64,000 nucleotides of DNA from Armatimonadota bacterium (GCA_018268355.1 JAFDWR010000001.1:1017858-1081857), one strand, 5' to 3'; positions 47,306-64,000 are shown, numbered from the stretch's first letter. The notes: generated by a model not told the origin, from the sequence alone. Numbers and translations are program-made.

Positions 47306-48514
47306 TCATTCGGAGCCATCAGCACCGTCTAACTCTGAGGTGTTTGCTAGCCGTACCTCATCAACATCGTAGACAAGGCCAGATATCGACCCATCTTTGA
47401 TCCGCTCAATGGCTTCATCAATCACGTGCAAAGGGACGAGGAACCACTCCTTTGGCTGAACTGGGTTGCCGAAACGGTCCTCGACTGTGATGCTTATCTG
47501 TGCCGGAGCGAAAACCCGGTGCAGAATCTTCTCAAGCTTCGTCCGGTCGATGTGAGACATCTTGTAGGTGGCCACAATCTCAACGTCGGCAAGCAAGAAC
47601 GTCGCATCCAGCTTTGCGTTCGCGATCCGTGTTTCTACCGATCCGCCGGTGACGCCAATCTTGTGAACGAGTTCTCGATGCTGAGCAATGAATGGATCAT
47701 CCGATTTACTTCGCAGCACATAAATCGTGCCGCTTAGGACGTCGCTCTCCTCCCACTCATCGCTAAACAAGTTCGGAACCACGGGATCCGAGAGCCGCCG
47801 ACCCGCCTCGTCCTTATAGAGTGCTCTTTGGAGTGAACGCAAAAGTAGGTTCGTCTCTGTGCCATTCGAATAAATCAGCCTGAGCCGTGCATCGGGTTCG
47901 CCATTCGGGGTCTTGAATGTGGGTCCACGCTCGGCAACATAGGCCATCTGGCCGCCGAGAATGAAGAACTCGCCTTGGCTGATGTTGATATCTCCTGAGA
48001 ATCGTTTCGTCTGCCTGATTCCCGCCTGGAGTTCGGCCTCAGCCCTATCAAATAGAGGCTTGAAAGATGCGAAGTCTTCACAAAGCGTGCGGTTTGCAAT
48101 CTCCTCTGCAGCCCGCCTTTCCTCGCGAGAAGGCACGTGCTTGAGTACCGCGACATTCGTTTCTGGGTTCAACTCGACGCCGAGCTCTGAGAGTAAGTGA
48201 TCGTCGTCCAGCGGTTCGGCTACAGGCTGCTCGTCCTCACTCATCCCCAAGAGACCGAACTTATCGAACTGAGCTATCAGTGCCGGGGCTTCGGGCAAGC
48301 TCCGGATGCGATCAAGCCGAACGGCGTACAGCCGTTCAAAAATGTCCAAGTGCTCACCATGCCTGGGTAAGTGTCCGTGCGTTTCATAGAATCGCTGGAT
48401 GTCCTCGAATCCGGCGATGATCCGCTCCTCAATTGGCGTGTACTTACCCTTCTTCGCTGGCTCGACTTCGACTCCAAGTTCAGCTAGGAGTTCATCATCG
48501 GTCAAATCAGGCAA
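47306..48514 (-). CDS. GIY-YIG nuclease family protein
   Basis: The 402-aa protein ends in a GIY-YIG-type domain (about 261-365) of the T5orf172/MUG113 kind: 'GTIYVLRSKSD', 'KIGVTGGSVETRIANAK' and 'RTKLEKILHRVF'. The N-terminal part has a duplicated motif, 'LTDDELLAELGVE' (about 4-16) and 'LDDDHLLSELGVE' (about 102-114), possibly a protein docking element. The start is TTG 48514, overlapping the helicase stop; in-frame sequence upstream only shadows the helicase gene. Last gene of a four-gene operon and the likely nuclease of the system. Confidence 0.8.
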   Translation of the reverse strand: MPDLTDDELLAELGVEVEPAKKGKYTPIEERIIAGFEDIQRFYETHGHLPRHGEHLDIFERLYAVRLDRIRSLPEAPALIAQFDKFGLLGMSEDEQPVAEPLDDDHLLSELGVELNPETNVAVLKHVPSREERRAAEEIANRTLCEDFASFKPLFDRAEAELQAGIRQTKRFSGDINISQGEFFILGGQMAYVAERGPTFKTPNGEPDARLRLIYSNGTETNLLLRSLQRALYKDEAGRRLSDPVVPNLFSDEWEESDVLSGTIYVLRSKSDDPFIAQHRELVHKIGVTGGSVETRIANAKLDATFLLADVEIVATYKMSHIDRTKLEKILHRVFAPAQISITVEDRFGNPVQPKEWFLVPLHVIDEAIERIKDGSISGLVYDVDEVRLANTSELDGADGSE

Positions 48515-50609
48515 CAGGTACTCCCGATTCCGATTTGGACTTTTCTTGAGCCCTATATCGCGCGAGGGCGGCGACGCCCTCTGCCATCTTCCGCTCCCAG
48601 GGGTCAGAAGAGCTGATATCGGGCAGCCGACCTCGCTCCCGCTTGTACAAGAGAGCCCGGTGTGCAAGTTCTCTCGCTTCATCGATGGGGATGTTCTGCC
48701 TCTTTGCCGCAATATTTGCCTCCACCTGCTTGAGCGTCTTCTCGTCCATGGCTTTAGACAGTATCGCGTAGGCCTTACCGAACGGATTGATTCGATCAAT
48801 AAGATCAATATCAAGTTCTTTCACATCCATCGCAAGCCGGCGAATCCCTTGAATCAGCGATAAATTTGGCTTGCCGCTATCCGCATTCGAGGTGTCGCCC
48901 TGCTGCTTGGCCTGCTGGACCAGCACAAGTGCCGCAATCGCTTGCTGACGAACCGCCTCTTGGTCCTGCTCGCTAAGTTCGGGATACCGGTCACGCACCA
49001 GCTTGCCCATGTGACCTTGGGTGAGCTCCTCCGGAACGGTGTGCTCCTGATCAAAGAGCCCCTTTTCGAGCACGGGCCTGTTTTGGATGAATGCGGTGAT
49101 GAGCTCGGTCAGATCTTCTTTACAGATCCGCTTTGCCTCGTCGCTCTTGGGCTCAACCAACCCGTTGAACTCGACGTGGACTTGACCGGTCTTCTCGTTA
49201 ACCCCAATATTGGTCCTGCCATCCTGATACCCCGTCTCGCCGTAGTCGAATCCCTCTTTCGCGCCCGAATTTTTGGGTGTGAACTCGAAGCGAGGGGCGA
49301 GAACTTGCTCCATGAGAAGGCTGGCGGCAATCGCCTTCAGCGTGTCGTTGATTGCATCGACCACCGCCTCTTCAGTAGCATCGGGTTCGGCGATCAGGTT
49401 GGTAAAGCGTGCTCGCTCTTTGCCGGGAGCATCCCGAGTCGCACGGCCAATGATCTGGATGATTTCGGTCAAGCTGCTTCGGTAGCCGATGGTGAGGGCG
49501 TGCTCGCACCAAATCCAGTCAAAACCCTCCTTGGCCATCCCGAGGGCAATGATGATGTCCACGTGGTCGCGGTTATGCCGTTGAGAGGGGTCCTTTAGCG
49601 CGGTCAAGACTTTGGCCCGCTCGATGGGTTTGCTGTCGTCCACCAGGTCGGCAACCTTCAGAAACCGGCCCTGATGCTCGTAGAGATGGAATCCGGTTAC
49701 GGGGTCAATTCCCTTCCATTCCCCGAGCCAATTCATGATCTCCTCGACCTCTTTCTGCTTATCTTTGAGGCTCTCCCGCGAGTTGACATTCGGGATGTGA
49801 ACTATGGTCTTTTGCGAAGGGTCAAGAACGGCCTCAACGGCATCCACATACCGGCCCGAATAGAAGTAGTAGCCGATCTCTAGCGACTTCAGGAACTCGT
49901 ATCCGTTGAGCTGCTCATAGTAGGTGTAAGTCACCGTGGCGAAGCGGCTCTCATCTTCGGGTGACAGCACGGCTTCGGCATCTCCTCGGAAGTAAGAGCC
50001 GGTCATGGCCACGAGATGCACACGGTCGCGGGCGATGAACTGCCCGAGTTGGGCACCAAGCCGGTTGTCTGGGTTTGCACTGACGTGGTGGAACTCATCC
50101 ACGGCGATCAGGCGGTCGTCGAACGCTTCCACCCCAAGCTCATCGATTGCGAACCGAAACGTCGCGTGGGTGCAAACTAGCACCTGATCTTCGCTTGCGA
50201 GGAACTCGCCCACCGCCTTGACCTTTGACTTGGCCACTTTCGGCTCATCGATCCCCGGCGCGTTGCAGAGATTCCACTGCGGTCTGACCCGCCAATCTGC
50301 CCAGAAGCCCGATTCGGTGAGGTTCTCGTCGGCGAAGCTCCCCCCAATAGAACGCTCGGGAACCACGATGATCGCCTGCTTCAATCCCTGATTCGCCAGC
50401 TTGTCCAGGGCGATGAACATCAACGCCCGCGACTTGCCCGAAGCAGGGGGCGACTTGATGAGCAGGTACTGTTCGCCTCTTTGTGCATAGGCGCGCTCTT
50501 GCATCGGTCGCATGCCCAGCTCGTTTGCTTTCGTCGATGCTCCCGTGCGGGCGGTCGAGATCGACACGGCGGGGACGATGTTTGGCTTGGCGGTAGGTTC
50601 TGGATTCAC
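48507..50609 (-). CDS. SF2 DEAD/DEAH-type helicase
   Basis: The 700-aa protein has a full SF2 core: 'LGMRPMQERAY' before motif I, Walker A 'SPPASGKSRAL' (about 53-63), motif II D171-E-F-H174 ('LIAVDEFHHVSA'), motif III 'VAMTGSYFRGD', motif V 'IALGMAKEGFDWIWC' and motif VI 'QIIGRATRDAP'. It resembles type III restriction (Res) and related defence helicases more than DEAD RNA helicases. Start GTG 50609 with GAGGG upstream, 17 nt after the 66-aa gene. The C-terminal 250 residues are helical and unassigned. Confidence 0.9.
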   Translation of the reverse strand: MNPEPTAKPNIVPAVSISTARTGASTKANELGMRPMQERAYAQRGEQYLLIKSPPASGKSRALMFIALDKLANQGLKQAIIVVPERSIGGSFADENLTESGFWADWRVRPQWNLCNAPGIDEPKVAKSKVKAVGEFLASEDQVLVCTHATFRFAIDELGVEAFDDRLIAVDEFHHVSANPDNRLGAQLGQFIARDRVHLVAMTGSYFRGDAEAVLSPEDESRFATVTYTYYEQLNGYEFLKSLEIGYYFYSGRYVDAVEAVLDPSQKTIVHIPNVNSRESLKDKQKEVEEIMNWLGEWKGIDPVTGFHLYEHQGRFLKVADLVDDSKPIERAKVLTALKDPSQRHNRDHVDIIIALGMAKEGFDWIWCEHALTIGYRSSLTEIIQIIGRATRDAPGKERARFTNLIAEPDATEEAVVDAINDTLKAIAASLLMEQVLAPRFEFTPKNSGAKEGFDYGETGYQDGRTNIGVNEKTGQVHVEFNGLVEPKSDEAKRICKEDLTELITAFIQNRPVLEKGLFDQEHTVPEELTQGHMGKLVRDRYPELSEQDQEAVRQQAIAALVLVQQAKQQGDTSNADSGKPNLSLIQGIRRLAMDVKELDIDLIDRINPFGKAYAILSKAMDEKTLKQVEANIAAKRQNIPIDEARELAHRALLYKRERGRLPDISSSDPWERKMAEGVAALARYRAQEKSKSESGVPVA

Positions 50610-50626: not shown

Positions 50627-50827
50627 CTACATCAAAACGAAGATCGAATCCTCTGAATTTTCAGTGGACAAGTTCTCCTCGACTACTGAGCTGTCGGTGA
50701 CTTGAACTTGGAAGTAATCCTTACAAGTTGAGACGCCGAGCGAGAAAGCGTATCCAACTGTCAAGGATTCCATTACGGCTTGAATTGGCTCACCTGCATA
50801 GTCTCGGACTCCATCAATCTTAAACAT
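50627..50827 (-). CDS. Small acidic protein in the methylase/helicase operon
   Basis: The 66-aa product begins 'MFKIDGVRDYAGEPIQAVME' and ends in an acidic, Ser/Glu/Asp-rich tail ('SSVVEENLSTENSEDSIFV'). Its ATG overlaps the methylase stop by 8 nt and its stop lies 17 nt before the helicase, so it is an in-line operon member. The size and charge would suit a regulatory or bridging subunit, or a DNA mimic. No family recognised. Confidence 0.6.
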   Translation of the reverse strand: MFKIDGVRDYAGEPIQAVMESLTVGYAFSLGVSTCKDYFQVQVTDSSVVEENLSTENSEDSIFVLM

Positions 50828-53654
50828 CCTGGAGTACCTCAAGTTGCTCGGGAGCTTTCTTCCGTGACTTCTTGATCGGGTTCTTCGCTGGGGTGTTTGG
50901 CTTACTCGCAACCATCTTGGCGTACAGTTCGAAGAGCTTTTCCAACCGCTCGGTGTCGTTCTTGAACCTTCGCCCGATATAGATTCGTTCTAGCGTTTCA
51001 TCGTTCAGTTCATGAGCACGGCGAAGGTCGTCCGGCATGTTTTCCGGGTCGTAGAGGTCGGCGATGGTCTTGGGGAAGTGTCGCTCACGGGCGAGGAGGA
51101 TCTCCTCCGCGCATCGGGTGAGATCGGCCTTGTTTTGCTCGGTCAGCGTCGGAACCGGAAACGTGTTCCAGCCGAGGGTGTTCGAATACGAAAATCGCAT
51201 CTCAAGGCGAACGCACACAGAGCCAATCCACACCCAGTGAAGGCGCGACGCGATGAGGGCCATATTCCACAGTGGTGCGTCGTAGAGGGCAAAGTTTCGA
51301 TCGCCAATAACGGTTTCCGTACCCAACACGTCTACGGGAAGATACTGACGTGCCTCCGAGCTGACTCGTGGGATTACTATTGATTGATCAAAAGACCGAT
51401 GTCGAACTTCGCCAAAAGCATAAGGCTTTGCTGCCATTTCACGAGTCTGGGGTTTGTCACTTCCTAGCCTCATTCTCGTTACCGATCTGAGTCGATTTTC
51501 GATCTCAGAATAGGAGCGGGCATCGTCTATATGCTCCTCGGAAATCCACAGGCAGTATCGTCGTTTTCCGTTAATAAGCTCTTCCGAATTTGAATATCTC
51601 AAAATAATCGGAGCCAATCTCGGATGCTTTGCAAGGAGAGAATCACGCTCCTCGCCGCTGAAGAAAAGAGACCCTCCATCAACAGGTTTACTGCCGAAGT
51701 CCATGGGCTCCAGACTATTCAAGGGCTTGGCCGACTTCTCGACAATAATGTTTGGCCCCGAAATCAAGTACGGATTGATGTTCTCGCACCACTTAACGGA
51801 ATAGCTGTCCGTGTCTTTGAAATCCGTGAAAATCTGTCGTGGCTGCTTTGGATCGTTCGTGAAACCGACGATTACTACGGTGACCCCCGCCCGGTTGCTT
51901 GCTAGGTTCGCCCACTTGAATGAGGTGTAGGCGAACTGGATTTCTGCACCAAGTTTCAGCAGGGTCGGCCACAGGGTCGGAACTTGCTGTCCCTGGCATA
52001 TCGAGTTAGTTGCAACGAGAGCAGTTCCGCAGCGGGTCTTGATGCCGTACTCTGCCGCTTTGAGAAACCAGCCCGCAACATAGTCAAGGAGCTTCCAGTT
52101 TTTCACCTTGCCTGTAAAGACAGCCTGCATGTCGGCCTTTTGCTCCCTCGTTTGCCACGTCGAACCCAGATAGGGAGGGTTACCGCAGATGTACGTCTCT
52201 CCACCCTCAGTCTTGAACTCGATCCTGGGCTGATCGAGGGGTGTTTCGAAAAGATCATTTGCCGTCGAAATAATCGAAACGTCTTTGCTTATCGGCGGGC
52301 AGATCGTGGTCCAATCAAGCCGTAAGGCGTTCCCACAGACGATCCAGTTCTCCGCATTAAGAGGCAGGAACTCGGCGAGAGCAAGCTTCGGACCGCGATA
52401 GAGCACATCGCATTGGAACTCGGCGATGATAAGGGCGAGGCGGGCGACCTCGGCTGCGAAATCGCGAATCTCGATGCCCCGGAAGTTAGTGAGGTGGATA
52501 TCTGAAGCTCGATCAATTTCATTTCGCCTTCGGTTGATCTCTCCTTCGATGGCTCGCATCTCCTTGTAGGCGATGACTAGAAAGTTTCCCGAGCCGCAAG
52601 CCGGGTCGAAGACCCGAATCCGCGACATCCGCTCACGAAGTTTCAACAGACTTGGCTTGTGATCCCCCGCCCGCTCCAACTGCTCTCGCAGGTCGTCCAA
52701 GAACAGCGGGTTAAGCACCTTGAGGATGTTGGGCACGCTGGTGTAGTGCATGCCGAGTGAACCCCGTTCCTCATCGTCGGCCACGGCTTGGATCATCGAG
52801 CCGAAGATATCGGGGTTGATCTCCCGCCAATTCAGCCGCCCAGCCGCGAGCAGGTAGCTCCGGGCGATCTTGGAGAACTTCGGCGTTTCCGGATTCCCCG
52901 AAAAGAGCCCGCCATTGACATATGGAAAGCCAAGTGCATAGAGTGGCAAACCCGACTCGTCCCGGTCTGCAATCGGGGTGTTCATCGCTCGAAACATCTG
53001 TTCCAGCACGAGATGAGTGTTCGAACCGTCCCGCTCGGTCATCCGTTCGACGGTTGCCGTGAACGGGTGCGAACCGTGGAAAATGTCGGTGTCTTCGGCG
53101 AAGAAACAGAAGATCAGCCGCGCCAAGAAGTGGTTGAGGTCCGGGCGGCGGGCTTCCGTCGCCCAATCCGGGTTCTCCTTGAGAAGCTCCACATAGAGCT
53201 TATTCAGCCTTCCGGTCGCCCGAACGTCAATCGGGTTATCCTTGATCTCCTTGACCGTAGTGATGCCAGCCAGGGGAAGGAAGAACCCAACGTGATCAGC
53301 AAACTTCGCGAATTCGCTCGTAACGATCTCGCCTGACGTCAGCTCTTCGGCTTCTAGCGTCTCTCCGTCCGTAGCGAGGATGAACTTCGCTTTGCCTTGC
53401 GCGGTTTTGGGGCTGTTCTTGAGGGCGGTCAGCACTTGGCCAACTTCACCGACCGGGGCCACGGCAAGATGAATGTTGTTCCGCTGAAGCACTCCGTTCG
53501 GGATGTCCGATCCATTGGACACGCCCCTTCTCAACTTGGCAAGGGTGTTGTCCTTATTCCCAAAGGCGGCTAGGAACTGGTAGGGGAACTCTGCCGCATC
53601 GAAGGGGCAAGCGGCAAGCTCCGATAATGCTGCCTCGATCTCGACCGCGTTCAT
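50820..53654 (-). CDS. MmeI-like class I SAM-dependent DNA (adenine-N6) methyltransferase
   Basis: The 944-aa protein has SAM motif I 'FDPACGSGNFL' (349-359) and catalytic motif IV 'NPPY' (492-495), the adenine-N6/gamma-class order, followed by a target-recognition region and a C-terminal helical domain with a basic tail ('NPIKKSRKKAPEQ'). The N-terminal 150 residues resemble MmeI-type enzymes but 'KFILATDGETLEAEEL' does not show a clear D...ExK nuclease site. Cleavage is therefore probably done by partners. Start ATG 53654 with GGAGGG 8 nt upstream. First gene of the operon. Confidence 0.88.
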   Translation of the reverse strand: MNAVEIEAALSELAACPFDAAEFPYQFLAAFGNKDNTLAKLRRGVSNGSDIPNGVLQRNNIHLAVAPVGEVGQVLTALKNSPKTAQGKAKFILATDGETLEAEELTSGEIVTSEFAKFADHVGFFLPLAGITTVKEIKDNPIDVRATGRLNKLYVELLKENPDWATEARRPDLNHFLARLIFCFFAEDTDIFHGSHPFTATVERMTERDGSNTHLVLEQMFRAMNTPIADRDESGLPLYALGFPYVNGGLFSGNPETPKFSKIARSYLLAAGRLNWREINPDIFGSMIQAVADDEERGSLGMHYTSVPNILKVLNPLFLDDLREQLERAGDHKPSLLKLRERMSRIRVFDPACGSGNFLVIAYKEMRAIEGEINRRRNEIDRASDIHLTNFRGIEIRDFAAEVARLALIIAEFQCDVLYRGPKLALAEFLPLNAENWIVCGNALRLDWTTICPPISKDVSIISTANDLFETPLDQPRIEFKTEGGETYICGNPPYLGSTWQTREQKADMQAVFTGKVKNWKLLDYVAGWFLKAAEYGIKTRCGTALVATNSICQGQQVPTLWPTLLKLGAEIQFAYTSFKWANLASNRAGVTVVIVGFTNDPKQPRQIFTDFKDTDSYSVKWCENINPYLISGPNIIVEKSAKPLNSLEPMDFGSKPVDGGSLFFSGEERDSLLAKHPRLAPIILRYSNSEELINGKRRYCLWISEEHIDDARSYSEIENRLRSVTRMRLGSDKPQTREMAAKPYAFGEVRHRSFDQSIVIPRVSSEARQYLPVDVLGTETVIGDRNFALYDAPLWNMALIASRLHWVWIGSVCVRLEMRFSYSNTLGWNTFPVPTLTEQNKADLTRCAEEILLARERHFPKTIADLYDPENMPDDLRRAHELNDETLERIYIGRRFKNDTERLEKLFELYAKMVASKPNTPAKNPIKKSRKKAPEQLEVLQDV

Positions 53655-54077
53655 TGCGAGAGCCCTCCACATGGAGGCTGAGTTGGCTTCGGAAGAATCT
53701 GATCTACCCCAGAATCGTGTGTGATCGGGGCGGGCTTCCCTATGCCCTTTAGGACAGATGGCTTGCCGCTCTCGATGCGACGCCCAACATGCTGGCGGTC
53801 ACCTTGAAGCACAACGGAGGGGAATAAGATCTGCCCAAGGTGAATCCCTGCTCCCTTTGCCACCATCAGATTCCATGATAGCAGGTGGTTTGCGCTTTAG
53901 AGGCCCCGTCACCGTCCTCGTACTTTGGCCGGTGGCCATTTGGCCGCCAGAACTGCTAGTGCTTTTGGACGGGTTTATACTGGCCCGGACAGCCGACTGT
54001 CGAAAGTCGAGGCACCATTTTGGAGAAATTGAAGCGCTTGATGTGTGCGCTCATCGACATGTTTGATACGATAGTTT
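53655..54077. other. Intergenic region between methylase and glycosyltransferase genes
   Basis: The 423-bp gap probably holds the divergent promoters of both operons. A 71-aa minus-strand frame (53651-53866) ends with TGA overlapping the methylase ATG, but its composition does not suggest a known protein. A plus-strand frame of 102 aa (53758-54066) is also unconvincing. TACGAT lies 5 nt before the glycosyltransferase GTG and might be its -10 box. No copy of the tRNA 3' end was seen here. Confidence 0.4.
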
Positions 54078-57000
54078 GTGCCGTACTCACCGACCGCGTC
54101 CGCGAATCGTACGAAGGGAGGCCCAGCCCAGCCGGCCGCTTGCATCTGTGTCCATGACGACCACCAGTGGCTCGCGCCTACCATTCGCAGCCTACGGAGC
54201 CTTGTCGATCCCCACGTTTTCGTAAGCCGAGTGCCGTGGGCGAGTGAGCCCGGAAACTGGGAGGAGAGCGCCCGAATTGCAACCGAACTTGGGGCACAGG
54301 TGCACGTCGGTGACTGGTCGTCCGAGCTGGAGCATCGCCGGGAAGCGCAAGCCATTTTGCTCCACCAGGGTTACGGCAAGGCCTTCGTTTTGGATTCCGA
54401 TGAAGTCCTGAGCAAGGGTCTTCTCGACCATCTTGTCGCGATCGCAAATGGCAACCTGGCGGACGTCGTTTGCGTTCATATGCGCACCTATTGGAAGGAT
54501 GCAGAGCATGTCGTCGATCCCCCCGAGCGGCTGACTCCTCCCGTCCTCATCGACCTCCAGAACGCCCAGCACGTTCATATTCGCGAGTATGCCGGTCCAA
54601 GGCAGCTGACACTGAGTCCTTCGTTTGGGGTCTTGCACCACCTTTCCTATGCGGGTTCCGATGAGCGAATCAAGCGAAAGATCGGGACCTGGTCCCATCG
54701 GCACGAGCTTGTGGACCGATGGTATGAGCGTGTGTGGAAGGGATGGGCAGGCGACCCGCTCCTCACCGATGTTCACCCGACTCACCCTGCGGCCTACAAA
54801 ACCATCATCGCCACCAAGCTCCATCCCGACCTCGAGGAAGCTGGAATTGTGCCCACGCCGGCCCCAGCATTTGATCTCCCGGCGATTTGGCCCAAGATCT
54901 CAGTGATCATTCCCGTCTACGGTGGACAGGATGACCTCGACGATTGTTTGCGGAGCCTTAAGGACTGTGCAGGGCTTTTCTCAGAGCTGATCGTGGTCGA
55001 TGACGCTTCGCCTGAACCCGTCAGCGCGACCTCTGCGACTCAACTAATCCGTCGAGAGACAAACGGCGGATTCGCCGCGGCGTGCAACACCGGCATCAAA
55101 GCATCAACGGGCGAGGTCGTAGTGATCCTCAACTCGGACACCTGCGTTCCTCGGGCGGGCTTCTACCGACTCATCGAGACGCTGATGACGAGCGGGTCGA
55201 TTGGCGCGGCCGGCCCGATCTCGAACTATGCCGGTTACCACCAGTACCTCGGGCGAGACCTCGCTGCCGATGAGAGCATGGAGCTTCTGTCCGTTGATTT
55301 GGCCGAGAGTTCGCGCCATGACCGCGACGTCGAAATGCTGGTTGGGTTTTGTGTGGCCATTCGGCGAGCGGTGCTGGACGAAGTTGGACTGTTTGATGAG
55401 GATTTTGGGCGTGGCTTCTTCGAAGACACCGACCTCTCCTATCGCATCCTCCGCGCGGGGTACCGGCTTCGCCTTGCGAACCGAGCATTCATTTATCACA
55501 AAGGGTCAAAGACGTTCGCTCGGGAGAGGATTTCCGCGCAGAGCCTGCTCAGTGTCAATCAAGCCAAGTACCGCAAGAAGTGGCAGGACGACCTCGAATC
55601 TGGCTTCGCGAGTCACCTTTCGGGGGAAGATCCATCGCCGATTGTCTTCAGAGAGGACCGCCGTCCAGATGTCATCACCAGGGAATTGAGGCGGCTTTGC
55701 GAACGGGCTGAAGTTTCCATCTGCATGATCGTCCGCAACGAGGAGCGGGTCATAGGCGATTGTCTAAGTTCGGTGGCTCCTTACTTCAGCGACATTGTTG
55801 TCGTCGACACGGGGTCTACCGATCAAACCGTGGAGATCGCAAAGAGCTTTGGTGCCCGGGTGAGCGAGATCGTTTGGCCAGATTCGTTTGCCGAGGCGCG
55901 GAATGAGTCCCTGAGGCTCGCCAATGGCCGCTGGATCTTTTGGATCGACGCCGACGATACCATTCCCCTCGCGACCGCCGAGGCGGTGATTCGCGCCGCA
56001 AGCTCGGCTTCGCCGGAAACGGCAGGGTTTGTCATTCCGGTCCAGTTTGTCGATGGTGAAATTGGCCAGGGGACCCGGGTTGACCACGTCAAGCTCTTTC
56101 GAAACCTCCCCGGTGTTCAGTTCGAGGGCAGGATCCACGAACAGATCCTTTCGTCGCTGCGTCCTCACGGAGAGATCGCGCGGCTGGAGGGAGCGGTGGT
56201 GCTTCACACCGGATACGACACGAGTCAAACCGGCCAGGCTAAGAAGCGAGAACGTGATTGGCACCTCCTCGAGCTGGACCTCAACGACCGTCCCAATCAC
56301 CCCTTCGTTCTGTTTAACATTGGCATGACTCATCGCTTCACGGGTGAGCACGTGCAAGCGATCGAGGCGCTTGACCGATGTTTGTCGGTCAGTGGCCCGC
56401 ACGAGTCGCACGTGCGAAAGGCCTTTGTCCTTCGCGGGAACTCTCTGCGGGCGATGGGCCGGCGAGAGGAGGCACTCGAAACCTTTCAACGTGGATTCGA
56501 GCTTGCGCCGGATGACCCAGAGCTCAGATTCCTACAGGGCCTAACCCAAATGGAGTTGGGTCGCCCATTGGAGGCTATCCACGCTTACGAGACGATGCCC
56601 GTTGACGCTTCTGGATTCTTCAGCAGTTTCGACGTCGGGATCCTGGGCCCGAAGCGAAATTTCAACCTTGCCGCTGCCTATTGGGCAGCCGGCAACTACG
56701 TGAAGGCAAGGGAGCTCTGGCGGCAGTGCAACTGGAAAGAGGCAGCAGAGGTCTTCTTCGACGCGGCTCTGCAGGTTGGGGACTTGGAACATGCGTCTGG
56801 AGCACTGAAGGTCATCAATCAGGAGTCTGGACTTGGGATCGAGTGGGCGGAGCGTTTGGTACGTTTCCACGAGACCCTCAACGGCCGCGAGGCTCAAGAC
56901 ACCGACCTGATCCAACTCCTTCAATCCAATCCCGGATCGTGGGGATTGACGCTGATCTGGGCGAGGCGACTCTGCCGCACCGGACGCTCCTCGATGGCGA

Positions 57001-57245
57001 TGGAGCACCTGGTTGAGCTTGCAAGCGGCGGTGTCGCGGAGGCAGCATATTATTTAGCGTTGATTAGTTTAGAGCTTAACAAACCTGAGGAGGCTCAGCA
57101 GTGGGCGCTGCGAACACTCGAACTCGATCCAGGTAGCCCGCAAGCAAATGAAGTGCTACGCAGAATCGCAGAGCCTTCGTCAGATTCAAGTGAACCTAGT
57201 CCGTGTACTTCTGAACCAAATGACAATGACGTGGAGATTGTTTAA
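54078..57245 (+). CDS. Triple-module glycosyltransferase with TPR-like C-terminus
   Basis: The 1055-aa protein has three GT-A-type modules: a divergent one at about 20-250 with D106-S-D108 ('AFVLDSDEVLS'); a classical GT2 at about 273-480 ('VSVIIPVY'-like start, N352-S-D354, 'FFEDTDLSYRILRAG'); and a third at about 545-720 ('ICMIVRNEERVIGDCLSSVA', D624-A-D626). Residues about 735-1030 form TPR-like helical repeats ('LFNIGMTHRFTGEHVQAIEA'). Module three plus TPR is the arrangement of SunS-type peptide glycosyltransferases and many surface-glycan enzymes. Start GTG 54078. It is followed 2 nt later by a NifU-like gene and then a Cys-rich peptide gene, which suggests a protein or peptide acceptor. 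Confidence 0.88.
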   Translation: MPYSPTASANRTKGGPAQPAACICVHDDHQWLAPTIRSLRSLVDPHVFVSRVPWASEPGNWEESARIATELGAQVHVGDWSSELEHRREAQAILLHQGYGKAFVLDSDEVLSKGLLDHLVAIANGNLADVVCVHMRTYWKDAEHVVDPPERLTPPVLIDLQNAQHVHIREYAGPRQLTLSPSFGVLHHLSYAGSDERIKRKIGTWSHRHELVDRWYERVWKGWAGDPLLTDVHPTHPAAYKTIIATKLHPDLEEAGIVPTPAPAFDLPAIWPKISVIIPVYGGQDDLDDCLRSLKDCAGLFSELIVVDDASPEPVSATSATQLIRRETNGGFAAACNTGIKASTGEVVVILNSDTCVPRAGFYRLIETLMTSGSIGAAGPISNYAGYHQYLGRDLAADESMELLSVDLAESSRHDRDVEMLVGFCVAIRRAVLDEVGLFDEDFGRGFFEDTDLSYRILRAGYRLRLANRAFIYHKGSKTFARERISAQSLLSVNQAKYRKKWQDDLESGFASHLSGEDPSPIVFREDRRPDVITRELRRLCERAEVSICMIVRNEERVIGDCLSSVAPYFSDIVVVDTGSTDQTVEIAKSFGARVSEIVWPDSFAEARNESLRLANGRWIFWIDADDTIPLATAEAVIRAASSASPETAGFVIPVQFVDGEIGQGTRVDHVKLFRNLPGVQFEGRIHEQILSSLRPHGEIARLEGAVVLHTGYDTSQTGQAKKRERDWHLLELDLNDRPNHPFVLFNIGMTHRFTGEHVQAIEALDRCLSVSGPHESHVRKAFVLRGNSLRAMGRREEALETFQRGFELAPDDPELRFLQGLTQMELGRPLEAIHAYETMPVDASGFFSSFDVGILGPKRNFNLAAAYWAAGNYVKARELWRQCNWKEAAEVFFDAALQVGDLEHASGALKVINQESGLGIEWAERLVRFHETLNGREAQDTDLIQLLQSNPGSWGLTLIWARRLCRTGRSSMAMEHLVELASGGVAEAAYYLALISLELNKPEEAQQWALRTLELDPGSPQANEVLRRIAEPSSDSSEPSPCTSEPNDNDVEIV

Positions 57246-57247
57246 CG

Positions 57248-57535
57248 ATGAATTATGTTGGCATAGGTGGTGAACCTGGAGAGGGTCGATACTTCGTATT
57301 GCGGGTCGCGGAGAAGGAAGCCCTTGTCGCTGAAGCGACATTTGAATCCAACGGTTGCATCGTGATCACAGCCGTCGGGCAGTGGCTTTGCCAGTTCATT
57401 CTCGGCCGCAAGGTTAGCTTGCTTACCCAGCTAGATTCAAATGATCTCCGGGTGTTATACGGCACTGTGCCTGAGGGCAAAGAATACGCACTATTTTTGC
57501 CAGCAGAGGCACTAAAAAACCTGAAACCGTTGTAG
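57248..57535 (+). CDS. NifU-N-like fold protein lacking cluster ligands
   Basis: The 95-aa protein matches the NifU/IscU N-terminal fold: 'VAEATFESNGCIVITAVGQW', then 'ILGRKVSLLTQLDSNDL' and 'GKEYALFLPAEALKNL'. IscU uses three cysteines; here only C37 of 'NGC' is kept. The first site reads 'GGEPGEGRY' and the third has Tyr (Y80) for Cys, so Fe-S scaffolding is unlikely. C48 is extra. It lies 2 nt after the glycosyltransferase stop and 23 nt before the peptide gene. It may act as an adaptor or carrier for the peptide; that is inference. Confidence 0.65.
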   Translation: MNYVGIGGEPGEGRYFVLRVAEKEALVAEATFESNGCIVITAVGQWLCQFILGRKVSLLTQLDSNDLRVLYGTVPEGKEYALFLPAEALKNLKPL

Positions 57536-57558
57536 AGTGATGGATGAGAGAGTGAATT

Positions 57559-57807
57559 ATGCCGAATACAGGAATCCCTTCTTTTCCAGGTTCAATGAGC
57601 GGGTCGGGTGGTAGTGCCTCAGGAGCTACTGCAAGTAGTTGCCCAATGAATAGTTGCGGCTGCAATTTCCAGGAGGGCGGCGCAGGTGATCCGTGTGGTT
57701 ACGGTTACTTGTTCTCGCCCTTGCCTTCGCCCGGAATGGTTTTTCCAGCCATTTGGGGGGCTAAGACACAGCAGATTGAGTGCCTCCAGATTCCAAACGG
57801 AATCTGA
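57559..57807 (+). CDS. Small Ser/Gly-rich, Cys-containing protein; candidate modified peptide
   Basis: The 82-aa product has a Gly/Ser/Thr block (about 11-27, 'GSMSGSGGSASGATASS') that could carry O-glycans, a cysteine cluster C28, C33, C35 ('CPMNSCGC'), C46 and C75, and aromatic residues around 'GYGYLF'. It sits directly after a peptide-type glycosyltransferase and a NifU-like gene, 78 nt before the RHS gene. A glycosylated RiPP-like or surface peptide is a plausible reading. The alternative, an unrelated small structural protein or a broken 5' piece of the RHS gene, is not excluded. Weak ribosome site. Confidence 0.55.
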   Translation: MPNTGIPSFPGSMSGSGGSASGATASSCPMNSCGCNFQEGGAGDPCGYGYLFSPLPSPGMVFPAIWGAKTQQIECLQIPNGI

Positions 57808-57885: not shown

Positions 57886-60800
57886 ATGGAATCCGCAATT
57901 CGCCTCGGAATCACCAACGACGGCTCCCGCCGCCAGCCCTACACCGCTTCGCCCGAACCGATCACCGGAGACCTCGTCGTTGACCCGGGCATTATCCTGA
58001 ACGCGAAGGGTTTCAACCTCTCCGTCGAGTTCTACTACAACGCCAAGTCGAATACGAACTGGGTTTACGGTCAGGGTCGATCGGCGAGCGTCAACACGTT
58101 CATCCTTACGGGAAACGCTTCAGTGGGCGCGGTCATCATCCGAGGCGACGAGTCGAACGTCGCCTTCAGCGTCTCCGGCGGCGTGTATGTGGCGCAGAAC
58201 AGCCAGTATTCGGGATCCACGCTCACGTTCAGCGCAGGCGTCTTCACCGAGACTTTCCCCGACGGAACCCAGATCGTTTACAAGGATCAGGGCAAGCCCG
58301 TTACCCCAGAAGGGTACGTCACGTACCAGGTGTCGCAGGTCGCCGATGGCTCCGGGGTCACCCACACCTATACCTATGGTTCGGGTTCCGAACTTGGATA
58401 TCTAAAGTCCATCACGTTGCCGGGTGGGAACGTCGTCACCTTCACCTACGCATCCTCGAAGCTCTCGAATGTAACCGACTGGACGGGGCGGGTTTGGACT
58501 CTCCAATACGATGCTTCGAGCTATCTGACCACCTTCACGACGCCGCTCGGATGCTCGACCAAGTACACCTACGCGAACGCCGGGGCAACCGTCCCGATGC
58601 TCAACGTGATTGAGGATCCGCGAGGCTATCGCACCACGTACCAATACGACTCTTCTCAGCGCGTGGTGTCGATGGCGGCGGGTTCCGCCATCTGGACCTA
58701 CACCTACTCCAACACCGCGCCGTTCAACTCAGCCGCAATTCTTCCGACCGGGGCGATCACAACCTACATCACTGACGGAACCCAGCTCGTCACATCCGAG
58801 CAGATGCCCGAAGGCTACACGGCCACCCACAGCTACGATGCCAAGCGCCGCAAGGTCAAGACTGTCACCCCGGCCGGAGAGGTCCTCAGCGTTGTCTACA
58901 ACGATCGCAACCAGATCACCGTCTCCGTCGATCCCCTTGGAAACCGCACCACTTATCAATACAGCACCGCCAACGACCTCACGACCCAGATTGACGCCCT
59001 CGGTAACATCTGGTCGTTCACTTATGACGCGAATCATAACCTGACGGTCAGCGTCGACCCGCTTGGACGTCGAACGACGAACACCTATAACGCGGACGGG
59101 ACGCTCAAGACGAGGCAAGATGCTCGCGGCCTTGTCACGACCCTCAGCTATGACAGCTTCGGCAACGTCGTGAGCGTCATCGCGAGCGACGGCGCGATCA
59201 GCACGACGGTTTACGACTCGCTCAATCGGCCCACGGTCAAGATCGACCCTCTCGGGCGTCGGACGACGATGGCCTATGACGTTGGCGATAACGTCATCTC
59301 GATGACGAATGCCGCCGGAGAGACCACGCGCTTCATCTACGACGGATGCTTGCAGGTCGCGACGGTAGATCCGCTCGGCAATCGAACGACGACCACCTAC
59401 AACCGCTGGGCGAAGCCTGCCACGGTGCAAAACCCGCTCGGGTTCGTCACGACGATGAACTACGACTCGATGGGCTATCAGGTCGCCAGCGTCGACGCGC
59501 TCGGCAACATCAGCACCACGGTCTACAACTCAGCCCACCAGGTGATCGCCTCCCAGGATGGCTTGGGCTACCTCACGACCTATGGCTATGATGCCGCCGC
59601 AAGGCAGAACTCGGTCCAAAACGCACGTGGTTTCATCACCACCACGATTTACAACGCACGCGATGCGATCGCAACGCAAGACGCCCTCGGCAACCTCTTC
59701 ACGGTGGTTTACGATGCGCTCGGACGGCGAGTCGCCTCCCAGACCGCGCTCGGGTTCAGGTCGACCACTGTGTATGATGCTGCAGGTCAGGCGATCGCCT
59801 CGATCGACCCGCTTGGCTTCATCACCACGATGACGTACAACGCGAACGGCCAGTCGGAAACCGTGAAGGATGCCCTCGGCAACGTCACCACCACCGTCTA
59901 CAGCTCAACCAGCAACCGCGTGATTGCAAGCGTTGACGCGCTCGGATTCCGAACGACGATGAGTTACGACATTGCAGGGCAACAGACGGCAATGCAAAAT
60001 GCTCGCGGGTTCCTTACGAGTTTCACCTACGATCTCGCCGGCCGGCAAAAAACCGTTCAAGACGCTCTAGGCTTTGTGACCACCAGCATCTACGATGGCG
60101 ATGGACGTCCGCAAGCCATCATGGATCCGCTGGGGCGGATGTCGACCACGGTTTACGATGCGGCGAGTCAGAGCATCGCCGAGATTAGCCAACTTGGCTT
60201 CATTTCGACCTCGGTCTACGACGCGCTCGGAAGGGTTCAGGCGTCGGTCGATCCGCTTGGCAACCGAACGACTCAGGTGTTTGACGCCAGGGGCATGACG
60301 GTGGCCAGCATCGATGCTCTTGGCTTCCGAACGACGTTGTCTTACGACTCGGTCGGAAACAGGACCGCTCAGCAGAACCCACGGGGCTTTGTCACGACGA
60401 TGGTCTACGATGGTCGTAATCGGCAGCAATCCCAGACCGATCCTCTTGGCTTCATGACGACGCAAGCCTATGATGCCGATGGCAGGACCATCAGCACGCA
60501 AACTCCTCGGGGCGGCTTGATCACGATGACCTATTCCGCGCGATCGGAATTGCTCTCAATCGGCAACGAACTCGGTCAGATCACCACCTACACGTTTGAT
60601 GGTGTCGGGCGACCCGTTACCCGCAGGTTTGCAAATGGTGACGTGACCACGACCACCTACTCAGCGAGAGGTGAGGAAACCCTCCGGCAATACAAGGATG
60701 GAAGCCTGGTCACCCAGGTCTATGACGCTGTCGGCAACCGTACCCAGCTCTCGGACTCGACTGGAATCACGACCTTCAGCTTCGACGCCGTGAACCAGAA

Positions 60801-61581
60801 CACCGGCAAGACGGACCCTGGGCCTCTTGTGCAAGCCTACGTCTTCGACGGTGCTGGTCAGCGGACGAAGCTCACCGACCCCGATGGGTTGGTGACGACT
60901 TTTGCCTTTGACGGCAACGGTAGGCTGATGAGCATGACATCCGGGAGCGGCGGGCAAGTGCTTTTCACATTTGACGCTGCAGGTCGAACGACGATGCAGT
61001 CCTTTGCCGCCGTCGACCGCACGAGGACGATGGGCTTCGACGCAAATTCCCAGCTCCTTTGGAATCGAGACTTCAGGACCGGACAGGACATGCAAATCCT
61101 GACCTACACCTACGATGGCAACGGGAACCGAACCAGCCAGCAGGGTGCTGGTGAAGCAATCACGACTTACACGATGGATGCCAAGGATCGGCTCACTCGT
61201 TCGCAACGTTCTGGCGTCGGCGGATTTGACTACAACTTCACCTATGACAGCATGGACAACATGACGGTGAACGGAGAGTGGTCACCAGTGGCGACGCAAA
61301 CCTATGACGCTGCAAACCGGATCACGACGATTCTTCAAGGCTCGGTCATGACCACCATCACGTTCGATGCGAACGGTAACCAGTCGATTGTGAACGAGGG
61401 TGGCTCAATCACGACGAACACCTACGACTTCGAGAACCGTCTTAAAGTTGTTCGCAAACCGGATAACAGCTTGGTGACAATGTCGTATAGTGGAGATGGT
61501 CAGAAGCGCACCCAAGTTTCTGGCGCATCGGTGACGACGTTTGTGTGGGATGGAACGGACTACCTTCAGGAGAGAAGCTAA
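57886..61581 (+). CDS. RHS/YD-repeat protein, N-terminal and repeat part
   Basis: The 1231-aa protein begins without a signal or membrane segment; residues 1-160 form a beta-rich N-terminal region ('PITGDLVVDPGIILNAKGFN'). From about 160 to the end YD repeats of the type 'TTVYDALGR' and 'DPLGNRTT' form the RHS shell. Between about 345 and 885 the period is an even 21 residues. The protein stops just after 'FVWDGTDYLQERS', before the conserved RHS core; the core is in the next gene, whose ATG overlaps this stop (TAATG). RHS proteins encapsulate and deliver C-terminal toxins or act in adhesion. The route of export is unknown. Confidence 0.88.
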   Translation: MESAIRLGITNDGSRRQPYTASPEPITGDLVVDPGIILNAKGFNLSVEFYYNAKSNTNWVYGQGRSASVNTFILTGNASVGAVIIRGDESNVAFSVSGGVYVAQNSQYSGSTLTFSAGVFTETFPDGTQIVYKDQGKPVTPEGYVTYQVSQVADGSGVTHTYTYGSGSELGYLKSITLPGGNVVTFTYASSKLSNVTDWTGRVWTLQYDASSYLTTFTTPLGCSTKYTYANAGATVPMLNVIEDPRGYRTTYQYDSSQRVVSMAAGSAIWTYTYSNTAPFNSAAILPTGAITTYITDGTQLVTSEQMPEGYTATHSYDAKRRKVKTVTPAGEVLSVVYNDRNQITVSVDPLGNRTTYQYSTANDLTTQIDALGNIWSFTYDANHNLTVSVDPLGRRTTNTYNADGTLKTRQDARGLVTTLSYDSFGNVVSVIASDGAISTTVYDSLNRPTVKIDPLGRRTTMAYDVGDNVISMTNAAGETTRFIYDGCLQVATVDPLGNRTTTTYNRWAKPATVQNPLGFVTTMNYDSMGYQVASVDALGNISTTVYNSAHQVIASQDGLGYLTTYGYDAAARQNSVQNARGFITTTIYNARDAIATQDALGNLFTVVYDALGRRVASQTALGFRSTTVYDAAGQAIASIDPLGFITTMTYNANGQSETVKDALGNVTTTVYSSTSNRVIASVDALGFRTTMSYDIAGQQTAMQNARGFLTSFTYDLAGRQKTVQDALGFVTTSIYDGDGRPQAIMDPLGRMSTTVYDAASQSIAEISQLGFISTSVYDALGRVQASVDPLGNRTTQVFDARGMTVASIDALGFRTTLSYDSVGNRTAQQNPRGFVTTMVYDGRNRQQSQTDPLGFMTTQAYDADGRTISTQTPRGGLITMTYSARSELLSIGNELGQITTYTFDGVGRPVTRRFANGDVTTTTYSARGEETLRQYKDGSLVTQVYDAVGNRTQLSDSTGITTFSFDAVNQNTGKTDPGPLVQAYVFDGAGQRTKLTDPDGLVTTFAFDGNGRLMSMTSGSGGQVLFTFDAAGRTTMQSFAAVDRTRTMGFDANSQLLWNRDFRTGQDMQILTYTYDGNGNRTSQQGAGEAITTYTMDAKDRLTRSQRSGVGGFDYNFTYDSMDNMTVNGEWSPVATQTYDAANRITTILQGSVMTTITFDANGNQSIVNEGGSITTNTYDFENRLKVVRKPDNSLVTMSYSGDGQKRTQVSGASVTTFVWDGTDYLQERS
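58917..60540 (+). repeat. Tandem 63-nt coding repeats (YD/RHS units)
   Basis: About 25 diverged units of 21 codons encode TT-x-YD-x-x-G...D-x-LG-(N/F)-x-T. Some units have 'ARGF' in place of 'PLGF'. They are in frame with the RHS gene and are protein repeats, not CRISPR. Confidence 0.8.
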
Positions 61582-62510
61582 TGCCTGTAACGAACTTTGT
61601 GACCGCGAACGGTCAGGTGCTCTGTGAGACGACAACGGGCTCGGGGACCGTATATTATCATCCAGACGCCCTCGGTAACGTCACCTGCGCCTCTCAAGGC
61701 AAGACGGTCCAAAAGGCGACCTATACCCCCTACGGTCAGGGGACGAGACCGGCAATGGCGAAGCTTGGCTGGGTCGGTGCCTGGGGCTATTACCCGACCA
61801 ACCTGTCGACGCCGAGCCACTACGTCAGAGCAAGGCACTTTGACAACCTGCGCGGGATATGGGCAACCCGGGATCTGCTGTGGCCGAGGCAAAGCGGCTA
61901 TGGTTACGTGAATGGCCGCTTGATTGTGGAAGTGGACCCATCGGGTCTATGGCCCACTAGGCAATCGCGGACCGTTAACGTACCGACGCCACCGCCTCTT
62001 CCGCCACAGCCACTTACATGTTCAAAGGAGTGGAATGAGTACGTGTTTGGACTTTGTTGGTACGCGAGTAAACATACTGGTGCTCAGGGTCTATGCAACT
62101 ATTACGCGTCTGCATATTACCAAATTTGCCGAAAGCCGTCCCGTGGTTGTGATACGCCACAGAACTGGGTTCCAATGGGCAAGGCCGGCATCGCACCAGA
62201 ACCTTTCGATGAAGCCCTTGCTCGAGAGCAGGAAAAGAAATACTGGGAGAGTCAGGCGAGGTATGACAAGGCTCCTCCACGTTACAAAACCATCTCTGGC
62301 CGACCTTGTTTCAAGATCCTGCAGCCTGAAGGCGCGACCGTCGTAGTGTTTCCTATTCCGCTTGGAGCTTGCTATGCTTGTTGTCAACGAACCTTTACTG
62401 TAAGCAAGCTCATATCAGACTGCGAGTTTGACTGCTGGACCGCATTCCTAATTCTAACTCAAAATGGCATAAACCAGTTTGAGCCACCGCAGCGGATTTT
62501 GGTAAAATGA
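61581..62510 (+). CDS. RHS core with variable Cys-rich C-terminal domain (candidate toxin)
   Basis: The 309-aa protein starts 'MPVTNFVTANGQVLCETTTG' and carries the RHS core: 'YYHPDALGNVTCAS', 'YTPYGQG', 'HYVRARHFDNLRGIWATRD' and 'GYGYVNGRLIVEVDPSGLWP' (D119-P-S-G-L123, the usual self-cleavage boundary). After a Pro-rich linker (135-144) comes a variable domain of about 165 residues with 11 cysteines (C147 to C285), unlike toxin families I know. Splitting the core from the repeats is unusual, but the same split recurs at 63913/63920. A small lipoprotein gene follows. Confidence 0.78.
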   Translation: MPVTNFVTANGQVLCETTTGSGTVYYHPDALGNVTCASQGKTVQKATYTPYGQGTRPAMAKLGWVGAWGYYPTNLSTPSHYVRARHFDNLRGIWATRDLLWPRQSGYGYVNGRLIVEVDPSGLWPTRQSRTVNVPTPPPLPPQPLTCSKEWNEYVFGLCWYASKHTGAQGLCNYYASAYYQICRKPSRGCDTPQNWVPMGKAGIAPEPFDEALAREQEKKYWESQARYDKAPPRYKTISGRPCFKILQPEGATVVVFPIPLGACYACCQRTFTVSKLISDCEFDCWTAFLILTQNGINQFEPPQRILVK

Positions 62511-62525
62511 AATAAGGATGAGTCT

Positions 62526-62945
62526 ATGAAAATGATCCAGATTAAGTGCCTCTTCCCCATCGCGTTTTCTGTTCTGATCGGCTGCGGAGGTCAAGCTATA
62601 GCTCCGGGAGAGTACAAAGTTGACGCAAAGGCAAGTACTGTACTAGCGCCCGGTCTGGGTGAATCAGCCCTCGTATATGTCTTCGAAAGTGGTGGTAGAT
62701 GGTCGTACGCAAAGGGCTTTGCAACGGGTTCATGGAGCCCGTCAGAAAATGGTATGATTCAGGTGAAGCTTGCCGAAGACGAAAGGAGCAGCTTTTATCG
62801 CAAGGTCGTGAATCTGAATCGCGGAGAGCCCGCAGATTCTGATAAGCCAATCTTGTTCAAAATACAGAGCTCTAACACAATTCTATTTGACATGAAACAG
62901 CGTTATGATTCCAATTCGAAGTACCTAGTGTTGCGAAGGTCTTAA
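62526..62945 (+). CDS. Small lipoprotein, possible immunity protein
   Basis: The 139-aa protein has a lipoprotein signal 'CLFPIAFSVLIGCGGQ' (lipobox LIGC) and a small mature domain of about 115 residues. It lies 15 nt after the RHS core/Cys-rich gene, on the same strand, in a stretch visibly richer in A and T than the RHS genes. That is where an immunity gene to an RHS toxin is expected, and a lipoprotein would suit a toxin acting in the periplasm. Function is inferred from position only. Confidence 0.55.
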   Translation: MKMIQIKCLFPIAFSVLIGCGGQAIAPGEYKVDAKASTVLAPGLGESALVYVFESGGRWSYAKGFATGSWSPSENGMIQVKLAEDERSSFYRKVVNLNRGEPADSDKPILFKIQSSNTILFDMKQRYDSNSKYLVLRRS

Positions 62946-63103: not shown

Positions 63104-63913
63104 ATGCTCTCCCAGTTCGACGTCTTTGCAACTGCTGGCGCTCAATACAAAGGCGTGATCCGCGAGACGGATGCGACTGCAGACGGAGCTGGAAAGATCA
63201 CGCTGGCGTTTACATCGGTGACTGACCTTGCGGCGGTTAATGGTGTCGAGATCATCCCTTACGCTGTTTACGATCAGGAGAACAGACTCACCGGAGTGGC
63301 CAACCCCGGCATCACGGCGGGTTCTCCCTCGAGGATCAACGTCGGCGGACCCAAGGTCTCAACCTACGCCGAAGATCCGGGTGCTAACGTGATCTGGGGC
63401 GAGATGGTGTGTGACAACACCGTTTCTGCGATCGACAAGTCGGGGGCAACGAATCCCGCTCCTGATGACGTCTATCGAAGTCTGCGGTGGGGTCCATGCC
63501 AGATGACGGTGGCCGAGCTCGTCCCCAGTCGCCAGTACAAGGTGAGGTTCCACTTCATCGAACCGACCTGTACGGCGGCGGGGCAGCGGGTGATGAGCCT
63601 GCTCATCAACGGTACGACGGTCAACGCTTCTTATGACATTTACGCCTCGGCGGGCGCGAGGTTCAAGGTGAACATCCAGGAGTTCCTTGCCAATGCAGAC
63701 GCTAACGGCAAGATCGTGGCCGAGACCGGTGTGATCACAAACGCACCGATCTGGTACGGGCTCGAGGTGATTGACAATACGGCGAGCACGCCAAGCGTTT
63801 CCTTGGCGACGACCTACACGTATTCCGGGGATGGTCTGAAGCGCTCTGAGGTCGCGGACGGAGTCACGACGACGCTGGTCTGGGATGGAACGGACTATCT
63901 GGGCGAGGTTTAA
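63104..63913 (+). pseudogene. 5'-truncated RHS-associated protein with malectin-like domains
   Basis: The frame encodes 269 aa. Residues 1-50 ('LSQFDVFATAGAQYKGVIRE') are the C-terminal half of a malectin-like carbohydrate-binding domain whose N-terminal half is missing. A complete malectin-like domain follows (about 77-227, 'YKVRFHFIEPTCTAAGQRVM', 'INGTTVNASYDIYASAG'). The end, 'LATTYTYSGDGLKRSEVADG' to 'VWDGTDYLGEV', matches the end of the RHS gene at 61581. A stop (TAA 63101-63103) lies immediately in front. It looks like the tail of a larger RHS gene left by recombination. Confidence 0.6.
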
Positions 63914-63919
63914 CTTGCA

Positions 63920-64000
63920 ATGGCCCTAAAGACAAAGTACTACACGGCAAATGGTCAGATGCGGATGCAGCGCTCACCAGGCGATGTCCGCTCGACGCTT
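63920..64000 (+). CDS. Start of a second RHS-core gene (cut by window edge)
   Basis: ATG 63920 opens a frame running off the right edge (27 codons). 'YYTANGQMRMQRSPGDV' resembles the start of the RHS-core gene at 61581 ('FVTANGQVLCE'). It begins 6 nt after the stop of the malectin/RHS piece, repeating the split-gene arrangement. Confidence 0.6.
   Translation, partial: MALKTKYYTANGQMRMQRSPGDVRSTL

What the first reader, a model, noticed from the sequence alone, without database searches (positions are those of the whole stretch)
54078..57807. Glycosyltransferase / NifU-like / Cys-rich peptide gene set
A 1055-aa enzyme with three GT-A modules and TPR-like repeats is followed, 2 and 23 nt apart, by a 95-aa NifU-fold protein and an 82-aa Ser/Gly/Cys-rich protein. 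The third GT module plus TPR is the layout of SunS-like peptide glycosyltransferases. Together they look like a modification enzyme, an adaptor and a substrate, possibly for a glycosylated RiPP or surface peptide. The gene order and spacing are seen; the function is inferred.
Basis: partly seen in the sequence, partly recalled or inferred. Interest (0 to 1): 0.75.

Follow-up and report, generated by a model that had tools for sequence, protein, structure and literature searches.

The report
Split Rhs toxin operon with accessories
The three genes are the front end of a repeated operon in Armatimonadota bacteria that makes an Rhs-type (probably antibacterial) toxin from separately encoded pieces, with a protein-glycosylating enzyme and a repurposed iron-sulphur-scaffold protein as dedicated helpers, a combination found in none of the papers searched.

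Summary
The three ORFs, their coordinates and their spacing are real, but the set is cut too short. It is the 5' part of an operon found across Armatimonadota: [GT-TPR] - [NifU/IscU-fold protein] - [Gly/Ser/Pro/Cys-rich small protein] - [Rhs shell] - [Rhs core plus variable C-terminal domain]. Of 89 matches to the shell's N-terminal domain in the phylum, 64 have the NifU-like gene within 2 kb upstream on the same strand. The small protein is under purifying selection and in some genomes is fused to the Rhs N-terminus or to a HINT-like domain. Beyond the window lie four further tip cassettes with nearly identical cores and unrelated Cys-rich C-termini: a polymorphic-toxin array. The NifU-like protein has the IscU fold but has lost its metal ligands, keeping one Cys and one Lys. 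The glycosyltransferase's third module plus TPR is closest to GmaR in sequence and to SunS/ThuS in structure, so a protein or peptide acceptor is likely. Best reading: a split Rhs polymorphic toxin whose detached N-terminal segment is chaperoned by a repurposed IscU and glycosylated. Toxicity, glycosylation and the chaperone role are inferred.

The parts
54078..57245 (+). Three-module GT-A / TPR protein glycosyltransferase (modules about 20-250, 272-525, 542-740; TPR about 740-1030)
57248..57535 (+). NifU/IscU-fold protein with metal site lost: E12, R14 and A81 replace IscU C37, D39 and C106; C37 (= IscU C63) and K78 (= IscU K103) kept
57559..57807 (+). Gly/Ser/Pro/Cys-rich small protein (82 aa, 5 Cys), read as the detached N-terminal segment of the Rhs system
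57886..61581 (+). Rhs (YD-repeat) shell, 1231 aa, ends at ...VWDGTDYLQERS just before the Rhs core
61581..62510 (+). Rhs tip, 309 aa: Rhs core with the two Asp motifs (RDLLWP, DPSGL) plus a Cys-rich variable C-terminal domain; starts at the TAATG stop-start overlap (ORF tool start 61545)
62526..62945 (+). 139-aa lipoprotein-like ORF directly after the tip, candidate immunity gene (unproven)
63104..63913 (+). Malectin-domain fragment ending in the shell-type 'VWDGTDYLGEV', heading the next tip cassette
63920..64000 (+). Start of tip cassette 2, which continues beyond the window; three more follow downstream in L107

Best explanation
This is a split Rhs polymorphic-toxin operon. The Rhs protein is encoded in three pieces: a small Cys/Gly-rich N-terminal segment, a beta-cage shell, and a C-terminal plug with a variable effector domain. 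These match the borders where known Rhs toxins cut themselves only approximately, because here the plug travels with the tip. The NifU-like protein is an IscU fold stripped of its metal ligands. It is inferred to act as dedicated chaperone or maturation adaptor of the small N-terminal segment, in a role like that of EagR-type chaperones in type VI Rhs loci. The GT-TPR enzyme is inferred to put sugars on Ser/Thr or Cys of that segment (or of the shell) before export. Tip cassettes stored downstream supply alternative effector domains by recombination at the near-identical core. Shown: operon conservation, folds, loss of ligands, purifying selection, fusions, tip array. Inferred: toxicity, immunity, acceptor of the sugar, chaperone role, export route.
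For: Conserved order in about 40 loci; 64 of 89 Rhs-N matches have the NifU-like gene within 2 kb upstream on the same strand, and GT-N and Rhs-N co-occur by genome (44 genomes with both; 49 with GT-N, 58 with Rhs-N; Fisher p about 5e-34, not corrected for shared ancestry). IscU fold with C37 to D/E, D39 to P, C106 mostly lost, C63 and K103 in 42/42. Cys-rich segment fused to Rhs in L042 and L065, and the small protein extended by a PT-HINT-like domain in L051 (E 1.5e-4; weak Hint-type hits in L062). Shell/tip split with TAATG-type junctions in many loci, fused in others. Both core Asp positions invariant in 25/25 tips. Tip array: first 90 aa 90-96% identical, C-terminal domains 21-27% among the four; one tip elsewhere hits Ntox16 (E 8e-4). 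GT: SunS Z 26.9, GmaR E 6e-28, second module like polypeptide GalNAc-transferases (Z 22.5), and GT-N relatives beside flagellin, fliW and csrA in G232, with flagellar genes also around the G231 copy.
Against: No toxic activity, immunity or glycosylation was tested. The C-terminal domains have no confident Pfam hits. No PAAR or other export domain was found on the shell, and no signal peptide is apparent by eye. GT-N is absent from some genomes that have the rest (e.g. G069, G111, G136), so the GT is not obligatory. The chaperone role rests on gene position and ligand loss alone. L071 lacks the small protein, and L100 (G096) has a Cys-free 110-aa ORF after the NifU-like gene instead.
Confidence: 0.6

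Rival explanations
1. The Rhs proteins here are glycosylated surface or adhesion proteins (teneurin-like, cell-cell recognition) with variable tips, not toxins.
For: GT close to protein-modifying enzymes; Cys-rich tips suited to an oxidising exterior; the Rhs core's best solved match is a teneurin-like protein; malectin fragment next door.
Against: Tip cassette array with near-identical cores and unrelated ends, most followed by a small ORF, HExxH motifs in several tips, one Ntox16 hit: the layout of polymorphic toxins. A 2026 paper finds bacterial teneurin-like proteins themselves encoded as effector/immunity pairs (PMC13018210).
Confidence: 0.22
2. A glycocin-like RiPP unit (GT + adaptor + peptide), with the Rhs genes merely downstream neighbours: the first reader's view.
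For: SunS-like third module; small Cys-rich protein beside the GT.
Against: Rhs follows the small gene across the phylum; Cys-rich segment fused to Rhs; a locus without GT keeps NifU-like + small + Rhs (L041); no peptidase or exporter seen adjacent; NCBIfam SunS model 80.8 bits vs cut-off 350.
Confidence: 0.1
3. The NifU-like protein is a working sulphur or Fe-S carrier that puts sulphur or a cluster on the Cys-rich small protein or tip.
For: One Cys (IscU C63) and K103 invariant in 42/42; partners are Cys-rich; no other NifU_N protein was found in this genome.
Against: C37, D39 and mostly C106, ligands of IscU/SufU, are gone; many genomes with the cassette also have another NifU_N relative elsewhere.
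Confidence: 0.13
4. The GT is an ordinary surface-polysaccharide synthase placed there by chance.
For: The two-module part also resembles chondroitin polymerase and heparosan synthase.
Against: Same three-module enzyme directly upstream, or divergent, in many genomes; best matches are peptide/protein-type enzymes.
Confidence: 0.06

Closest known systems
Rhs polymorphic toxins (type VI Rhs1/Tre23, Tse5; TcB-TcC; bacterial teneurin-like proteins)
   Same: YD-repeat shell, core with two conserved Asp motifs, variable C-terminal domain, downstream tip cassettes (PMC8636562, PMC3482391).
   Different: N-terminal segment, shell and plug+effector are separate genes; no PAAR domain found; NifU-like and GT genes stand where other systems have EagR-type accessories.
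IscU / NifU-N / SufU scaffolds
   Same: Fold and about 20% identity; one Cys, Lys103 and Pro100 kept.
   Different: Three of four ligand positions replaced in most members; genetically tied to Rhs.
SunS / ThuS glycocin S-glycosyltransferases
   Same: Third GT module plus adjacent helical repeats; Cys-containing small partner.
   Different: Two further GT modules, long TPR; the small gene belongs to Rhs; no RiPP export genes seen.
GmaR (GT2 + TPR flagellar antirepressor) and flagellin glycosyltransferases such as FlmG
   Same: GmaR is the closest solved sequence to module 3 (E 5.8e-28); GT relatives in this phylum lie in flagellar clusters.
   Different: No flagellin beside this locus; three GT modules. 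FlmG was only met in a literature list and not compared.

Membership tests
Rhs polymorphic toxin | RHS/YD repeats forming the shell | tested here: met
   RHS_repeat 23 stretches, E 3e-104; solved Rhs shells E down to 7e-27
Rhs polymorphic toxin | C-terminal core with conserved Asp motifs | tested here: met
   both Asp positions invariant in 25 tips; cleavage itself not tested
Rhs polymorphic toxin | Polymorphic tips sharing the core | tested here: met
   90-96% vs 21-27% identity in the local array
Rhs polymorphic toxin | Cognate immunity gene after each tip | tested here: inconclusive
   a small ORF follows most tips; the one scanned has no known immunity family hit
Rhs polymorphic toxin | Toxic activity of the tip | not testable with these tools
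   one Ntox16 hit at E 8e-4 in another genome's tip
Type VI Rhs effector | PAAR/N-terminal domain and EagR (DUF1795) chaperone | tested here: not met
   Pfam finds neither on the shell nor on the neighbouring proteins scanned
IscU/NifU scaffold | IscU fold | tested here: met
   AF2 + Foldseek
IscU/NifU scaffold | Cluster ligands C37, D39, C63, C106 | tested here: not met
   only C63 kept in all 42; C106 in 11
SunS-type glycocin system | SunS-like GT with adjacent helical repeats | tested here: met
   Z 26.9 to 7msp
SunS-type glycocin system | Scores above the SunS equivalog cut-off | tested here: not met
   80.8 vs 350 bits
SunS-type glycocin system | Peptide precursor with peptidase/ABC exporter beside it | tested here: not met
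   neighbours are an MmeI-type enzyme upstream and Rhs genes downstream
Protein O/S-glycosyltransferase | Sugar transferred to a protein | not testable with these tools
   structure, sequence and flagellin-cluster relatives only

The most novel reading that the evidence does not exclude
A new design of Rhs toxin: the N-terminal trafficking segment is a separate, glycosylated Cys-rich peptide, and an IscU fold that has lost its metal site has been recruited as its dedicated maturation factor or chaperone, using the one conserved Cys and Lys of the old cluster site.
Probability: 0.4. Interest if true: 0.82.

Novelty: new variant of a known kind. Interest (0 to 1): 0.68.

Why it matters
It would be a dedicated, non-Fe-S role for an IscU-fold protein in a toxin system, and a natural dissection of Rhs proteins into separately made N-terminal, shell and tip parts. 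It also links GmaR/SunS-type protein glycosylation to Rhs effectors in a poorly studied phylum, and the split makes long-standing questions about Rhs loading and sealing testable one gene at a time.

Tried and rejected
Single-sequence scan of genome contigs with the 95-aa protein found nothing, and the 18-row alignment was too divergent for that tool; a closer subset worked and named the organisms as Armatimonadota. Viral contigs: no relatives. Plasmids: one Planctomyces plasmid with a big GT, NifU-like and Rhs genes; the other plasmid hits are mostly annotated as NifU or Fe-S scaffold proteins and were not followed up. Literature searches for Rhs with NifU/IscU and for Armatimonadota Rhs found nothing relevant; subscription papers are not covered. 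Ordinary Fe-S scaffold rejected on ligand loss. Chance ORF for the 82-aa frame rejected on dN/dS. An extension of the NifU-like match upstream through three TGA codons was not taken as coding. The Rhs-N profile has no hit among solved structures, so the fold of that leading domain is untested.

Full report
Observation. The three ORFs and their spacings are as stated. The GT has two Pfam GT2 domains and TPRs; the AlphaFold model (pLDDT 86.5) shows the third alpha/beta module at the N-terminus, and all three keep acidic DxD-type motifs across 14-17 homologues. The 95-aa protein is an IscU fold. The 82-aa ORF is a real gene: ORFs mostly of 70-105 aa occur at the same place in about 30 loci, usually with five Cys, in the unextended forms with the last Cys 3-12 residues from the C-terminus, and little Lys/Arg; close pairs show dN/dS of about 0.06-0.19.

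The operon goes on: an Rhs shell of 1231 aa starts 78 nt after the small gene, and an Rhs core/tip gene starts in a TAATG stop-start overlap at 61581. A search of 291 genomes of the phylum (Armatimonadota by the record titles) found NifU-like matches in 77 (the weakest of these may be ordinary NifU). Neighbourhoods of 40 matches show the order [GT]-NifU-like-small-Rhs shell-Rhs tip again and again, with up to six copies in one genome. Using an Rhs-N profile and a GT N-module query, 64 of 89 Rhs-N matches have a NifU-like gene within 2 kb upstream on the same strand, many exceptions being contig edges or tandem copies; by genome GT-N and Rhs-N coincide in 44 (of 49 and 58). The NifU list was compiled by hand from two searches, so the reverse fraction is biased; the Rhs-to-NifU fraction is at worst an underestimate. 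Shared ancestry inflates the Fisher p value.

The small protein belongs to Rhs. A Cys-rich segment of the same kind is fused to the Rhs N-terminus in L042 (five Cys) and L065, and L074 starts with a related short segment; in L051 the small protein carries a PT-HINT-like domain, in L062 weak Hint-type hits. HINT domains are typical processing domains of polymorphic toxins (PMC3482391). Shell and tip are separate genes in about 16 loci and one ORF in about six. In type VI Rhs1 the N-terminal part, shell and toxin are cut apart by autocleavage, and the N-terminal part defines secretion and binds the EagR chaperone (PMC8636562). Here the parts are encoded separately, though the C-terminal plug goes with the tip, so the borders match only in part.

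Polymorphism. Downstream of the window (L107) four more tip cassettes follow, 90-96% identical over the first 90 aa and 21-27% over the C-terminal domains, each with 17-21 Cys; three carry HExxH. One tip from another genome hits Ntox16. Small ORFs follow most tips; no immunity family was recognised in the one scanned.

NifU-like protein. In 42 sequences IscU C37 is D/E (35), G or Q, D39 is mostly P, C106 is mostly Y or other (C in 11), while C63 and K103 are invariant. The conserved residues therefore still cluster, by homology, around the old cluster site, which points to a reused pocket rather than decay. The window copy lacks the N-terminal helix (about 23 aa) seen in most others. This genome has no other NifU_N match.

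Glycosyltransferase. Module 3 plus the first TPR helices matches SunS (Z 26.9, rmsd 2.4, 275 aligned), above the next group (polypeptide GalNAc-transferases, Z 22.5, on module 2). By sequence GmaR is closest (E 5.8e-28) and SunS/ThuS next among GTs (about 1e-19). GT-N relatives in G231/G232 lie in flagellar clusters; in G232 the enzyme is between csrA and flagellin. A protein or peptide acceptor is thus likely; which one is unknown.

Mechanism and verdict. The best reading is a split Rhs polymorphic toxin with a dedicated IscU-fold helper and a protein glycosyltransferase. Toxicity, acceptor, immunity and export are inferred. The genome also holds an extracellular contractile injection system on another contig, a possible but unlinked export route. 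The searches of held papers turned up none that describes the combination.

Noticed in passing
L107 (G000:C1:1078800-1098000), window-equivalent 63920-70828: Array of four further Rhs tip cassettes, starting at the window's edge, with near-identical cores and unrelated Cys-rich ends.
   Followed up: yes
G000:C3 (L109): Extracellular contractile injection system genes (eCIS core, Pvc16_N, sheath, tube) in the same genome; link to Rhs unknown.
   Followed up: partly
50820-53672 (-) and 48507-50609 (-): MmeI-type restriction/methylation enzyme with a helicase-like gene next to it, just upstream of the operon.
   Followed up: no
57209-57247: The NifU-like profile match extends upstream of the ATG through three in-frame TGA codons: perhaps a decayed N-terminal helix, perhaps chance.
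   Followed up: no
whole genome G000: No NifU_N (PF01592) match other than the Rhs-linked one in a 97.7% complete genome.
   Followed up: partly
L095 7067-11269: 1400-aa GT-TPR relative between csrA and flagellin genes, likely flagellin glycosyltransferase.
   Followed up: partly
L051, L062: Small Cys-rich protein extended by a HINT-like domain.
   Followed up: partly
L100 (G096:C39) 4462-4794 (-): After the NifU-like gene here comes a Cys-free 110-aa ORF instead of the Cys-rich one, and Rhs is divergent.
   Followed up: no
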